DNA from: Oribacterium sp. oral taxon 078 str. F0262
GTDB lineage: Bacteria; Bacillota; Clostridia; Lachnospirales; Lachnospiraceae
Length of the DNA: 64,000 bases
Direction: 5' to 3'
Assembly: GCF_000160135.1 (NCBI RefSeq)
Contig: NZ_GG729933.1
Coordinates: 440,816-504,815, forward strand
Shown piece by piece: positions 7,423 through 60,793 of this stretch; position 1 is the first letter of the stretch, and every line of letters starts with the position of its first letter. The position numbers and the translations under genes were made by a program. The notes below the pieces were generated by a model. It made no database searches and was not told the origin of the DNA. It was given only the letters and a program-made list of their open reading frames with translations.

Positions 7423-7472
7423 GCTCCGAAAGACCCGATCAGAATCAAGCAGGAAATTTTCGCAAGGGATGG

Positions 7473-7478
7473 TATAAT
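7473..7478 (+). promoter_or_regulatory. -10 box for the structured RNA array
   Basis: A perfect TATAAT with a GG immediately upstream. The expected start falls at 7485-7488, the first base of the long hairpin. No good -35 hexamer is visible here, unlike the second locus at 60.53 kb. The shared TTCCAG between -10 and hairpin suggests both are the same promoter module. Confidence 0.55.
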
Positions 7479-7485
7479 GATTCCA

Positions 7486-7640
7486 GTGTCTAAAGTCTCT
7501 CCGACGCGACGTGCTCGCACGGCGGAGTCGGAGAGACTTTAAGACACGCCCCGGCATGAGCAGGGAGGGATGCGGAGCAGACCGGGAGTGCGAATGTCGG
7601 GGAGCATGCTGAGAGCGACGAAGCCGCGAAAGCATGCGTG
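7486..7640 (+). ncRNA. Candidate structured RNA, locus A, complete copy
   Basis: The element begins with a ~20-bp hairpin (7486-7547; GTGTCT...AGACAC outside, capped by CGTG-CTCG-CACG). A second helix, CCCCGGCAT (7549-7557) with ATGTCGGGG (7594-7602), encloses the loop motif GAGCAGGGAG, a small TGC/GCA hairpin and GGGAGTGCGAA. A third hairpin, GCATGC (7604-7609) with GCATGC (7632-7637), follows. The same layout with different stem sequences recurs at 60569-60720, so the fold is supported by compensatory changes. It is not a tRNA, tmRNA, 6S or SRP RNA that I recognise. It sits upstream of the HerA-like ATPase gene; whether it acts in cis or as an independent RNA is open. Confidence 0.7.
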
Positions 7641-8330
7641 GAATCAGGAAAAGTAGAGCGGCGCACGGCGGAGTCGGAGAGACTTTAAGACACGCCCCGG
7701 CATGAGCAGGGAGGGCTGCGAAGCAGACCGGGAGTGCGAATGTCGGGGAGCATGCTGAGAGCGACGCAGACGCGAAAGCATGCGTGGAATCAGGAAAAAG
7801 TGGAGCGGCACGGGAGGGTCGGAGAGACTTTAGGATGCGCCCTTTATGAGCAGAGAGGGCTGCGAAGCAGAGCGAGAGTGCGAATGTCGGGGAGCATGCT
7901 GAGAGCGACGCAGACGCGAAAGCATGCGAGGAATCATTGTAAGAGCCGGGAAAAGGGCGAAGCCGGAGAGACTTTAGGATGCGCCCTTTATGAGCACGGA
8001 GGGCTGCGAAGTAGAGCGAGAGTGCGAATGTCGGGGAGCATGCTGAGAGCGACGCAGACGCGAAAGCATGCGTGGAATCATTGTAAGAGCAGGGAAAAGG
8101 GCGAAGTCGGAGAGACTTTAGGATGCGCCCTTTATGAGCAGGGAGGGATGCGGAGCAGACCGGGAGTGCGAATGCCCGGGAGCATGCTGAGAGCGACGCA
8201 GCCGCGAAAGCATGCGTGGAATCAGGAAAAAGTGGAGCGGCACGGCGGATTAGGATGCGCCCTTTATGAGCACGGAGGGCTGCGGAGCAGAGCGGGAGAG
8301 CCCTGCTTTATGGAGAAGAGGCAGAGAAGG
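7641..8330 (+). repeat. Tandem diverging copies of the structured RNA element
   Basis: Four further copies and one partial copy follow the complete element at a period of ~145 bases, anchored by TCGGAGAGACTTTA at about 7674, 7819, 7964 and 8107 and a remnant near 8250. They keep GAGCA, GCGAAT and the GCATGC hairpin but lose the 5' arm of the long hairpin. From the third copy on, the left arm of the second helix changes from CCCCGGCAT to GCGCCCTTTAT, which no longer pairs with ATGTCGGGG. In two copies it can instead pair with a newly present AAAGGGCG upstream (7945 and 8096). An open frame across the array is an artefact of the repeat period. Confidence 0.75.
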
Positions 8331-8340
8331 AGAGGGAAGG

Positions 8341-10068
8341 ATGCGATTTGAGGATAAGCTTTGGGTGCTGAAGGATGCTGATGACGGGAGCAGGGTTTCT
8401 ATCCTGCCGAAGATGGCGAACCGCCACGGCCTGATCGCGGGCGCGACCGGGACCGGGAAGACGGTGAGCTTAAAGGTGCTCGCGGAGTCCTTCAGCGAGA
8501 TGGGGGTGCCGGTCTTTCTCTCAGATGTGAAAGGGGATCTTGCGGGCTGCTGTGAGGCCGGTGCGGACTCCGAGGACATGAGGAAGCGGATCGAATATTT
8601 CGGCCTGGAGGGGACAGGATTTCAGTTTCGGAGCTTTCCGGTGCAGTTTTTCGATCTCAGCGGGGAGAGAGGCCTTCCGCTTCGGACTACAGTCTCTGAA
8701 ATGGGGCCGGTGCTTTTGTCAAGGCTTCTCCAGCTCTCGGATCTTCAGGCGGATATCCTTTCTATCGTATTCCGGATCGCGGATGAGGAGAAGCTTCTTC
8801 TCCTCGACTCCAAGGATCTCCGCTCCATGCTCCAGTATATCGGGGAGAATGCCGCACAGTATTCCGGAGAATACGGCAACATGTCGAAGCCGAGCCTGAA
8901 TGCGATTCTCCGTGCCGTGGTGGCACTGGAAAATGCGGGAGGAGATCGTTTCTTTGGAGAACCGGCCATTGATATCCGGGATTTTTTTCGGACGGACAGC
9001 GATGGGAGAGGATTCATCACTATCCTGGACGCGGCGCGGATCGTGCAGGACCCGAGGCTCTACTCGACCTTCATGCTCTACCTGCTTTCTGAGCTCTTCG
9101 AAGCACTGCCGGAGGCGGGGGACCCGGAAAAGCCAAAGCTTGTCTTCTTCTTCGACGAGGCGCACCTTCTCTTTGATAATGCGCCGAAGGCTCTTTTGGA
9201 AAAAATAGAGCAGGTCGTCCGGCTGATCCGAAGCAAGGGGATCGGGATTTATTTCATCAGCCAGAGTCCCTCCGATCTCCCGGATTCCGTATTATCCCAG
9301 CTTGGAAATAAAATCCAGCATGCGCTCCGCGCCTATACGCCGGCGGAGGAGAAAAAGCTGAAGAGCGCGGCGCAGTCCTTCCGGAAGAATCCCGCATTCG
9401 ATACGGAAAAGCTGCTCTCGGAGCTCGGGACCGGAGAGGCGCTGGTATCCTTTTTGGATCAGGAGGGACGGCCCGAGCCGGTGCGAAGAGGGAAGATCCT
9501 TCCGCCGGAGAGCAGGATGGGGCCGATCGAGGACAGCGTCCGCGAGACGAAAATCAAGGCATCCTCGCTCTATTCGAAATACGATGCAAGCATAGACCGG
9601 GATTCCGCCTATGAATTTCTGAAGAGAAAGACGGAGCTTTCGGAGGAGGAGCTTCGGAAGGCTCTGGAGAGATCAGCGGCGGAGAAGGAGGAGGCAGAGC
9701 GCCGGACGGCGGAGGAAAAGGCAGCGGCAAAGGAAAGAGCGGAGGCGGAGAAGCTTTCAAAAAGGCAGCAGGCAGAGGCGGAGAGGCTTGCCCTGAGAGA
9801 AGAAAAGGAGAGGGAAAGAGCAGAGGCGAAAGCCGCGAAGGAGAAGGAAAAGGCGGAGGCAAAGGCCGAAAGGGAGAAGGCAAAGGCGGAGAAGGAGAAG
9901 AGTGCGATCATTAAGAGGGTCGGGAAATCCACCGCGGGAGCGATCGGACGGGAGCTCGGAAATTCAGTCGGAAAGTCCCTCCTCGGAAACAGTGTCGGAC
10001 GCAGGATCGGAGGAAATGTCGGCTCCGCGCTCGGCCGGGGCATCCTGGAAACCTTATTCGGAAAGTAG
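8341..10068 (+). CDS. HerA-like ATPase, DUF853 family
   Basis: A 575-residue P-loop ATPase of the HerA/DUF853 (YjgR-like) family. Walker A is GATGTGKT near residue 37, Walker B is VFFFDEAH near residue 266, and a sensor-like FISQSP follows. A charged Ala/Glu/Lys coiled coil spans about residues 440-530. The glycine-rich tail, with repeated GNSVG/GRRIGG patterns, is typical of the family. The cellular role is unproven; DNA translocation is an inference from HerA. ATG 8341 follows GGAGAGGGAAGG. An upstream in-frame start would extend into the RNA repeat and is rejected. Confidence 0.85.
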   Translation: MRFEDKLWVLKDADDGSRVSILPKMANRHGLIAGATGTGKTVSLKVLAESFSEMGVPVFLSDVKGDLAGCCEAGADSEDMRKRIEYFGLEGTGFQFRSFPVQFFDLSGERGLPLRTTVSEMGPVLLSRLLQLSDLQADILSIVFRIADEEKLLLLDSKDLRSMLQYIGENAAQYSGEYGNMSKPSLNAILRAVVALENAGGDRFFGEPAIDIRDFFRTDSDGRGFITILDAARIVQDPRLYSTFMLYLLSELFEALPEAGDPEKPKLVFFFDEAHLLFDNAPKALLEKIEQVVRLIRSKGIGIYFISQSPSDLPDSVLSQLGNKIQHALRAYTPAEEKKLKSAAQSFRKNPAFDTEKLLSELGTGEALVSFLDQEGRPEPVRRGKILPPESRMGPIEDSVRETKIKASSLYSKYDASIDRDSAYEFLKRKTELSEEELRKALERSAAEKEEAERRTAEEKAAAKERAEAEKLSKRQQAEAERLALREEKERERAEAKAAKEKEKAEAKAEREKAKAEKEKSAIIKRVGKSTAGAIGRELGNSVGKSLLGNSVGRRIGGNVGSALGRGILETLFGK

Positions 10069-59364: not shown

Positions 59365-59438
<74 letters not shown>

Positions 59439-59463
59439 TTCACAGTGAAATAGACTGTGATAT

Positions 59464-59538
59464 GGTGGGCATAGCGTAGTTGGTTATCGCGCCAGATTGT
59501 GGTTCTGGAGATCCCGGGTTCGACCCCCGGTGCCCACC
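59464..59538 (+). tRNA. tRNA-His (anticodon GTG)
   Basis: Acceptor GTGGGCA pairs with TGCCCAC. The extra G(-1) at 59464 faces discriminator C at 59538, the identity mark of tRNA-His. Anticodon stem CCAGA/TCTGG with loop TTGTGGT. Confidence 0.95.
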
Positions 59539-59557
59539 CTTTGCTGCAGGATTACGC

Positions 59558-59630
59558 GGGGCTATCGCCAAGCGGTAAGGCACAGGCCTTTGACGCCTGC
59601 ATTTCGTTGGTTCGAATCCAACTGGCCCTG
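59558..59630 (+). tRNA. tRNA-Gln (anticodon TTG)
   Basis: Acceptor GGGGCTA pairs with TGGCCCT, with a weak G-T first pair as typical for tRNA-Gln, and discriminator G. Anticodon stem CAGGC/GCCTG with loop CTTTGAC. T-stem GTTGG/CCAAC. Confidence 0.93.
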
Positions 59631-59633
59631 TTC

Positions 59634-59706
59634 GAGACACTAGCTCAGTCGGTAGAGCACTTGACTTTTAATCAAGTTGTCGCGGGTTCGATTCCCGCGT
59701 GTCTCA
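59634..59706 (+). tRNA. tRNA-Lys (anticodon TTT)
   Basis: Acceptor GAGACAC pairs with GTGTCTC and is followed by discriminator A. The anticodon loop is CTTTTAA on stem CTTGA/TCAAG. It lies three bases after tRNA-Gln. Confidence 0.95.
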
Positions 59707-60529: not shown

Positions 60530-60558
60530 TTGACACCCCCCTCCGGAAATGGCATAAT
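60530..60558 (+). promoter_or_regulatory. Promoter of structured RNA locus B
   Basis: TTGACA (60530-60535) and CATAAT (60553-60558) are 17 bases apart. The predicted start (about 60565-60569) coincides with the first base of the long hairpin. Confidence 0.8.
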
Positions 60559-60568
60559 TATACTTCCA

Positions 60569-60720
60569 GTATCGGAAAGTCTCTCCTCCTCGACGTGCTT
60601 GCACGGGAGAGGAGGAGAGACCTTCCGACACGCCCCCCAATGAGCAGGGAGCGGCGGGAGCGTCGCGGGAGTGCGAATTGGGGGAGCATGTCGAGAGGCG
60701 CGAAGCGGCGAAGACATGCG
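60569..60720 (+). ncRNA. Candidate structured RNA, locus B
   Basis: It has the same architecture as locus A. A long hairpin at 60569-60631 (23 positions, two A-C mismatches) has the tip CGTG-CTTG-CACG. A second helix, CCCCCAAT (60634-60641) with ATTGGGGG (60677-60684), encloses GAGCAGGGAG, a hairpin GCGGCG/CGTCGC and GGGAGTGCGAA. A last hairpin CATGT/ACATG (60687-60691 with 60714-60718) follows. Loops match locus A exactly while most stem bases differ in compensated pairs. It lies in the leader of the CBS-pyrophosphatase gene, whose ATG is about 225 bases from the predicted start. Confidence 0.75.
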
Positions 60721-60793
60721 GAAGTATAAAAAAGAGCTGCAGAGCGCACTGCAATATAGAGTGTACGGCTATATATAGAAAGAGGGGAGAGCA

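What the first reader, a model, noticed from the sequence alone, without database searches (positions are those of the whole stretch)
7486..7640. New candidate structured RNA class: complete copy at locus A
Directly after a perfect TATAAT lies a compact, highly paired segment with four helices and conserved single-stranded motifs (GAGCAGGGAG, GGGAGTGCGAA, GGAGCATG). Compared with the element at 60569-60720, three helices change sequence on both arms but stay paired: CCCCGGCAT/ATGTCGGGG versus CCCCCAAT/ATTGGGGG, GCATGC/GCATGC versus CATGT/ACATG, and the lower part of the long hairpin. That is the signature of selection for RNA structure. I do not recognise it as a named family. Tandem RNAs such as the drum motif are known in Clostridia, so a match to an existing model is possible.
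Basis: partly seen in the sequence, partly recalled or inferred. Interest (0 to 1): 0.88.

Follow-up and report, generated by a model that had tools for sequence, protein, structure and literature searches.

The report
Known RNA family is mobile DNA
The segment is not a new RNA class: it is a copy of a catalogued RNA (Clostridiales-1) of unknown role, and comparison of many copies indicates that this RNA is the body of a small jumping DNA element that has spread, sometimes dozens of times per genome, through many related bacteria.

Summary
The new point is what the family is: a MITE-like mobile element. The host genome holds 66 matches in 39 places; only 2 of 39 share both flanking genes with 30 fetched loci of the closest sampled relative. 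At locus A, pflA and herA stay neighbours in 9 relatives, 78-451 bp apart without an RF01699 match, against about 920 bp here. In other genomes of the genus and family, copies carry terminal inverted repeats (TGATNNNRGKGTCAAAAG) and 5-6 bp target duplications: 15 of 32 in a first set, 17 of 24 in a second set from other genera (expected 1.7 and 1.5). The "perfect TATAAT" straddles the insertion junction. Covariation is strong (24 of 24 pairs), but G-U pairs are barely commoner than A-C mismatches, unlike RNase P and T-box RNAs, so DNA-level upkeep of the hairpins is a live rival to RNA selection. No transposase was found, and most host copies, both window loci included, lack the outer terminal repeat.

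The parts
7470..7478 (+). extended -10-like promoter box TGGTATAAT; TATAAT (7473-7478) straddles the junction: TATAA lies outside, the final T is the first base of the element
   Evidence: sequence; TATAAT-like hexamers at junction offsets -2 and -5 are the two top peaks in the host copies and in the mixed set of other genomes, -2 alone in G005; 5-bp T...A target duplications in other genomes. No right-end duplicate is visible at this locus
7478..7646 (+). complete RF01699 Clostridiales-1 unit, lead copy
   Evidence: cmscan 116.1 bits, E 9.8e-26, gathering 48, model 1-166 of 166
7478..7484 (+). 5' arm of closing stem P1 (TGATTCC), equivalent to the left element terminus TGAT...
   Evidence: cmscan structure line; terminus
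7487..7546 (+). long hairpin P2; its 5' arm corresponds to the left terminal inverted repeat of complete elements elsewhere
   Evidence: terminal repeats
7550..7601 (+). hairpin P3 with purine-rich internal loops GA/GA and GGA/GGA
7604..7637 (+). hairpin P4 with purine-rich internal loop
7640..7646 (+). 3' arm of closing stem P1 (GGAATCA)
7680..7792 (+). partial tandem copy 2 (lacks the 5' arm of P2 and the promoter)
   Evidence: RF01699 62.5 bits
7825..7936 (+). partial tandem copy 3
   Evidence: RF01699 45.2 bits, just below gathering
7969..8080 (+). partial tandem copy 4
   Evidence: RF01699 48.8 bits
8113..8224 (+). partial tandem copy 5; followed by a truncated sixth unit to about 8300
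   Evidence: RF01699 41.1 bits, below gathering; period-144 array 7517-8245; sequence
60530..60558 (+). promoter-like TTGACA - 17 bp - CATAAT before the second locus
   Evidence: sequence; scan
60561..60726 (+). complete RF01699 unit at the second locus; single copy, no outer right terminal repeat seen
   Evidence: cmscan 101.2 bits

Best explanation
The segment is a copy of RF01699 (Clostridiales-1), and RF01699 is the body of a small non-autonomous transposable element (MITE-like). The host family is probably Lachnospiraceae, an inference from the labels of the nearest herA relatives. A complete element, as seen in other genomes, runs from TGAT... through the RNA-like core (long hairpin P2, P3, P4, closing P1 arm) to a second inverted copy of the left end...ATCA. 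It is inserted into A/T-rich sites with a 5-6 bp duplication, mostly of the form T...A. Shown: the termini and target duplications in part of the family, the differing sites between relatives, and the spread in copy number. Inferred: a transposase supplied in trans moves it (no gene found); insertion assembles a -10 box from the flank plus the element's first bases (TA|TGAT or TNNNA|T), so that insertions near a -35-like sequence are transcribed from just before hairpin P2; and partial tandem units arise afterwards by local duplication or nested insertion. In the window's genome most copies, including both window loci, do not have the outer right terminus, so locus A reads as an old insertion that has become a promoter-led tandem array. 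The most likely role is self-propagation in cis: the folded strand (RNA or single-stranded DNA) is conserved because it helps the element move or persist. No host function has been shown.
For: Rfam match. 66 matches in 39 clusters in a 2.68 Mb genome. 0 to 36 matches in the 16 other genomes of the genus under stricter filters. 135 of 250 genomes of the family, 134 of 249 genera, have a match; 0 of 14 control genomes do. Near-identical copies at unrelated sites in G018 (7 of the 8 fetched) and G009 (6 fetched) define the ends. End-pattern sites are abundant in some genomes: G016 has 163, with 0 for the reversed-pattern control. Target duplications: exact 5-mer in 15 of 32 against 1.7 expected, and in a second set from seven other genera exact 5-6-mer in 17 of 24 against 1.48 expected. 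Only 2 of 39 own loci share both flanking genes with 30 fetched loci of the closest sampled relative. Missing at the same place: locus A 0 of 12 relatives with pflA, 9 of them with herA still next to it; locus B 0 of 15 relatives. Promoter-like scores of at least 9 of 12 in 17 of 39 own lead copies against 1 of 39 at a control offset.
Against: No transposase with these ends was found, from lone-end neighbourhoods or at 20 fetched loci with IS1634-family matches. In the second set the right end was recognised in only 24 of 40 copies, and in none of 7 from G261 or 4 from G268. End-pattern sites were 0 in G006 and G008 and 1 in G005, and the host genome was not scanned with that pattern. In 39 host arrays a downstream inverted copy of the left arm aligned with score 36 or more in 11 and reached the left terminus in 5; the two window loci are not among them. 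In G000 and G005, direct repeats at the RF01699 boundaries are not enriched (0 of 32 and 1 of 22), and G005 instead shows locus-specific inverted flank extensions. The MITE reading is thus carried over to the window from relatives. At locus B the neighbouring gene (eda) was not found in the relatives' stretches, so that is no clean empty site. Two sites shared with G005, a decayed element shared by G010 and G015, and elements beside T-boxes in several genomes show that some copies persist.
Confidence: 0.82

Rival explanations
1. RF01699 is an ordinary family of host trans-acting small RNAs, as the 2010 table implies (RNA likely, not cis-regulatory). The many copies are gene duplicates retained for dosage or target diversity.
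For: Covarying internal helices and invariant loop bases. Promoter-like sequences upstream in the host genome: 17 of 39 against 1 of 39, and TTGACA-like hexamers at the right distance in 9 of 39 against 1 and 0 in control windows. Rfam types it as Gene; sRNA.
Against: Target duplications and terminal repeats, differing sites, absence at the same place in relatives, copy number from 0 to dozens within a genus. No G005 copy (0 of 23) has a TTGACA-like hexamer in the right window.
Confidence: 0.1
2. The covariation is kept at DNA level rather than by RNA function: the hairpins are needed as single-stranded DNA or cruciform for mobilisation, or template switching between inverted arms keeps rewriting one arm from the other. 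This is compatible with the best explanation and concerns what the fold is for.
For: G-U to A-C ratio of paired columns: elements 0.7 to 2.6 in five alignments, RNase P 7.1 (23 sequences), T-box 7.7 (24 sequences), same pipeline. Double-sided to single-sided cells 243 to 10 in A1. Locus-specific inverted extension of the closing stem into the flank: G005 10 of 22 copies with 4 or more bases against 1.7 expected, G000 (32 copies) mean 1.78 against 0.57. Template switching as a source of perfect stems and compensatory changes is in print (PMC8794818; abstract and passages seen).
Against: Purine-purine mismatches lie on one strand (84 AG/GA/GG against 5 pyrimidine-pyrimidine, 4 of them TT), and the RNA strand folds more stably in 87 of 94 copies, so the top strand is special. 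The strand bias does not tell RNA from single-stranded DNA, and RNase P (20 of 22) and T-box (23 of 24) show the same stability bias. A stricter 1x1-mismatch count did not separate elements from controls. The double- to single-sided ratio of the five element alignments runs from 24 down to 4.7, close to RNase P at 4.2. Alignments of repeats are phylogenetically dependent.
Confidence: 0.4
3. A cis-regulatory leader RNA (riboswitch-like, tandem as in some riboswitches) controlling herA and the DHH phosphatase gene downstream.
For: Both window copies lie upstream of a co-directional gene: HerA-like ATPase and a DHH/DRTGG/CBS/DHHA2 protein. Six copies in relatives lie 22-37 nt downstream of T-box leaders on the same strand.
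Against: Across 39 host places the neighbouring open frames face either way by a simple ORF listing. The same genes lack the element in relatives. Neighbours in G000 and G005 mostly differ.
Confidence: 0.03

Closest known systems
Rfam RF01699 Clostridiales-1 RNA (Weinberg et al. 2010, PMC2864571; table passage seen)
   Same: sequence and four-helix structure over the full 166 positions
   Different: listed there as a likely RNA, not cis-regulatory; terminal repeats, target duplications and mobility are not in the passages I saw (its Additional File 1 was not readable here)
QMITE1 and QMITE2 of Coxiella burnetii (PMC5896051; abstract seen)
   Same: about 50 copies per genome; elements that give rise to small RNAs (CbsR3, CbsR13, CbsR16); direct repeats; QMITE1 with sigma-70 promoters
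   Different: different organisms and sequence; direct repeats 2-3 or 7-11 nt; multi-helix covariation across genera is not described in the abstract
Correia/NEMIS, ERIC, RUP, CIR bacterial MITEs (PMC2229807; passages seen)
   Same: 100-200 bp repeats, terminal inverted repeats and target duplications in several, transcripts with long stem-loops
   Different: mostly one stem-loop formed by the two ends; here three hairpins with conserved purine-rich internal loops plus a duplicated hairpin arm as right terminus
IS1634 family insertion sequences
   Same: 5-6 bp target duplications (recalled, not from a call)
   Different: 20 fetched loci with IS1634-family matches from relatives do not show these ends; apparent inverted repeats at some of them differ

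Membership tests
Rfam RF01699 Clostridiales-1 | covariance-model score at or above the gathering score of 48 bits | tested here: met
   116.1 and 101.2 bits, full model length
Rfam RF01699 Clostridiales-1 | conserved helices with covariation | tested here: met
   24 of 24 pairs with double changes, 0 of 500 shuffles reach the score
Rfam RF01699 Clostridiales-1 | expression as an independent RNA | not testable with these tools
   only promoter-like sequence was scored; no RNA-seq held
MITE (miniature inverted-repeat transposable element) | short, multi-copy, dispersed, no transposase inside | tested here: met
   mostly 182-212 bp between the ends, some longer; 66 matches in 39 places in the own genome
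MITE (miniature inverted-repeat transposable element) | terminal inverted repeats in family members elsewhere | tested here: met
   TGATNNNRGKGTCAAAAG type in other genomes of the genus and family; recognised in 24 of 40 copies of the second set
MITE (miniature inverted-repeat transposable element) | target-site duplication in family members elsewhere | tested here: met
   15 of 32 and 17 of 24, expected 1.7 and 1.5
MITE (miniature inverted-repeat transposable element) | outer terminal repeat and target duplication at the two window copies | tested here: not met
   right terminus not found at either window locus; direct repeats not enriched in G000, 0 of 32. The window copies are therefore assigned through homology with complete elements, as remnants, not as intact MITEs
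MITE (miniature inverted-repeat transposable element) | ends shared with an autonomous element that encodes the transposase | tested here: inconclusive
   none found among the neighbourhoods fetched; one transposase family tested
MITE derived from an IS1634-family element | ends matching those of a resident IS1634-family transposon | tested here: not met
   20 fetched loci, not every match
mRNA leader / riboswitch | conserved association with the downstream gene | tested here: not met
   0 of 12 and 0 of 15 relatives at the gathering score

The most novel reading that the evidence does not exclude
The conserved fold is itself a cofactor of mobilisation: RF01699 elements are RNA-dependent (or folded single-strand-DNA-dependent) non-autonomous transposons, in which the transcript started at the insertion junction is recognised by a still unidentified recombinase. 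Its fold would thus be selected in cis, which would explain why the internal helices and purine-rich loops stay intact in freshly spread copies across the family.
Probability: 0.13. Interest if true: 0.87.

Novelty: new member of a known kind. Interest (0 to 1): 0.53.

Why it matters
RF01699 is typed as a small-RNA gene in Rfam. If it is a transposable element, dozens of "sRNA genes" in some genomes of a large bacterial family are really insertions, and copy counts or phylogenetic profiles read as sRNA biology are misleading. The case also warns that base-pair covariation in multi-copy palindromic repeats can arise at DNA level, and it suggests a cheap check (G-U against A-C). It makes two questions testable: which transposase moves it, and whether its conserved fold works as RNA or as single-stranded DNA.

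Tried and rejected
New RNA class: rejected by the Rfam match. Leader RNA for herA or the DHH gene: rejected by relatives without the element. IS1634-driven MITE: 20 fetched loci with IS1634-family matches lack the ends. Autonomous element between two distant ends: apparent pairs in L262 (613 bp), L267 (1271 bp) and G016:C29 (2774 bp) showed no transposase-like frame by eye (no family search was run on them) and looked like decayed or separate short elements; L243/L244 hold a shared decayed end. Viral contigs: 11 stretches with one match each, judged chance-like and not pursued. Intrinsic terminators upstream: not enriched (3 of 39, 2 of 23, 1 of 28 same strand). A 1x1-mismatch test under a no-G-U fold was not informative because controls did not separate; the aligned-column ratio was used instead. 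A tRNA control failed to parse and gave 0 tRNAs. One orientation error of mine was corrected; one wrong regular expression was replaced; one strand list was off by one and corrected. Bridge-RNA (IS110/IS1111 seekRNA, PMC11187229, search listing only) was considered by recall and set aside because RF01699 elements make 5-6 bp duplications and their internal loops are short and conserved, not guide-like; no test was run.

Full report
Observation. The segment and its partner at the second locus are real, highly structured and covarying. Folding energies lie 7.9 and 9.3 standard deviations below dinucleotide shuffles, with 0 of 200 shuffles as good in either case. The unit as conserved is 7478-7646, and at locus A it leads a tandem array: four further partial copies score in the model, two of them above the gathering score, and a repeat finder reports period 144, five copies, 7517-8245. 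The partial units start in the tip of hairpin P2, so they lack its 5' arm and the promoter.

Identity. A scan against Rfam 15 matches 7478-7646 to RF01699 Clostridiales-1 with 116.1 bits, and 60561-60726 with 101.2 bits, both over the whole 166-position model. The gathering score is 48. The family is in the table of Weinberg et al. 2010, marked as a likely RNA, not cis-regulatory, from Clostridiales and human gut (PMC2864571, passages). Full-text searches for "Clostridiales-1 RNA" and "RF01699" returned 2 and 3 papers; judged from the listings, only PMC2864571 (in the second) concerned the family as such. Searches aimed at MITEs with structured RNA, Lachnospiraceae, Butyrivibrio, Roseburia or Rfam (listings) and passages of a 2024 MITE review (PMC10969869) gave no link between RF01699 and mobile DNA. 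The library holds open-licence papers only, so this is no proof of absence from print.

Copy number and place. The window's own genome has 66 matches, 54 of them above the cutoff, in 39 clusters. In the 16 other genomes of the genus the number runs from 0 to 36 (stricter filters). Over 250 genomes drawn from the family, 135 have a match, 114 of them above the cutoff, with at most 10 candidates scored per genome; 0 of 14 control genomes match. Of the 39 host places, proteins on both sides point to the same place in the closest sampled relative (G005; closest by the DHH protein, 82%) for only two: L005 with L167, and L039 with L179. A few further one-sided hits occur, the strongest L035 against L169/L196 at 44-49% identity, which I read as paralogues. 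G005 was represented by 30 fetched loci, its best of 37 matches, so shared weak copies could be missed.

Boundaries. Nearly identical copies at unrelated sites in G018 and G009 show where identity starts and stops. The left end is the first base of the Rfam model (TGAT...). The right end lies about 20-35 nt beyond the model end, at ...ATCA, and is an inverted copy of the left end. Pattern counts show how common such ends are in some genomes: 56 in G014, 50 in G009, 121 in G016, 30 in G015 and 22 in G010, against 0-1 for the reversed pattern, but 4, 3, 1, 0 and 0 in G004, G013, G005, G006 and G008; a looser pattern gives 163 in G016 against 0. The host genome was not scanned this way. Among 32 elements bounded by both ends, an exact 5-mer directly repeats outside the ends in 15, with 1.7 expected when left and right flanks are combined at random. 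These 32 come from the genus and family, were selected for having such ends, and count one right end twice (L236). I then took 40 well-scoring copies from seven other genera. The repeat rule was carried over, but the end pattern was written after a first printout of these flanks. The right end was recognised in 24 of 40, and 17 of these 24 have an exact 5- or 6-bp direct repeat, expected 1.48; allowing one mismatch in the 5-mer register gives 16 against 6.3. None of 7 copies from G261 and none of 4 from G268 showed the right end, so part of the family lacks it or differs. Of the left 5-mers 20 of 24 start with T and end with A.

Host genome. Here the picture is poorer. A downstream inverted copy of the left arm aligns with score 36 or more in 11 of 39 arrays and reaches the left terminus in 5; loci A and B are not among them. 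Direct 5-mers at the RF01699 boundaries are not enriched (0 of 32). So the host copies are mostly remnants or a variant.

Sites without the element. At locus A, 12 relatives have a pflA homologue. In 9 of them herA follows within the fetched stretch, 78-451 bp away by alignment coordinates, while in the window the distance is about 920 bp; none of the 12 stretches has an RF01699 match at the gathering score. At locus B none of 15 relatives has one beside the orthologous DHH gene, two of them with less than 500 bp of upstream sequence held; the neighbouring gene differs there, so this is weaker.

Promoter. In the host genome 17 of 39 lead copies have a -35/-10 combination scoring at least 9 of 12, against 1 of 39 at a control offset. 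In the mixed set of other genomes the figures are 11 of 28 against 0, and in G005 3 of 23 against 1. TATAAT-like hexamers peak at offsets -2 (TA|TGAT) and -5 (TNNNA|T) in the host and mixed sets, that is, across the insertion junction; in G005 the -2 peak is the main one. The -2 register is partly trivial, since four of its six bases are the element's own end. TTGACA-like hexamers at the right distance occur in 9 of 39 host copies (1 and 0 in control windows), 4 of 28 others (2 and 2) and 0 of 23 in G005. Transcription itself was not testable.

Structure. In a 42-row alignment the consensus has 24 pairs in three hairpins. Every pair has double-sided changes, 92.9% of cells pair, and sliding the partners by one to three columns drops this to 20-44%. 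P3 and P4 lie outside the terminal repeats, so their covariation is not a by-product of symmetric ends. But double-sided cells outnumber single-sided ones 243 to 10. Under one pipeline the ratio of G-U to A-C in paired columns is 0.7 to 2.6 in five element alignments against 7.1 for RNase P (23 sequences) and 7.7 for T-box RNAs (24 sequences) from related genomes. The double- to single-sided ratio is less clear: 4.7 to 24 against 4.2 and 3.5. A no-G-U folding test did not separate the classes. In G005 the closing stem extends into the flank with locus-specific pairing: 10 of 22 copies by four or more bases, 1.7 expected. Template switching during replication can make and mend such stems (PMC8794818, abstract and passages). 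I therefore treat "RNA selection" as unproven, and "a folded strand is conserved" as shown.

Partner. No transposase was found. Lone ends and other sites were followed in 20, 20 and 6 stretches, and 20 fetched loci with IS1634-family matches, chosen because that family is recalled to make 5-6 bp duplications, do not show these ends.

Verdict. A known RNA family, not a new class; a new reading of that family as a mobile element with precedent in other bacteria (PMC5896051 abstract; PMC2229807 passages). For the window itself the assignment rests on homology plus the missing element in relatives, because both window copies have lost, or never had, the outer right end.

Noticed in passing
L247:222-559, L248:190-531, L249:275-533 (G009, G010, G015): RF01699 elements enlarged to 259-342 bp by extra hairpin modules (TGGCAG...GTTCCCA type) inserted inside the core, in L247 and L248 at two places (P3 and P4); looks like a second small structured element nested in the first. 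Rfam gave no name for the insert.
   Followed up: partly
G008:C1:575469-575875, G010:C11:38746-39174, G014:C44:8239-8684, G015:C12:34290-34703, G015:C22:183165-183593, G016:C12:5496-5949: Six RF01699 copies lie 22-37 nt downstream of a T-box leader on the same strand (positions). They may be one or two ancestral insertions or a site preference.
   Followed up: no
G005 loci L169, L174, L176, L179, L181, L182, L185, L186: Flanks of TAAGTCC/TAAGCTC-type elements are locus-specific inverted repeats (for example AATGT before, ACATT after), as if inserted in the centre of palindromes or extended by template switching.
   Followed up: partly
window 7734-8351: A 205-codon open frame runs through the tandem array because 144 is a multiple of three; no Pfam match, probably not a gene.
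   Followed up: partly
L231, L232, L240 and G016 sites: A second subtype with ends TGATGTAAGGGTCAAAAGT / ACTTTTGACACTCACATCA; of three copies scanned two scored 63-69 bits against RF01699 and one, with masked bases, was not matched.
   Followed up: partly
window 59365-59706: Cluster of four tRNA genes just upstream of the second locus.
   Followed up: no
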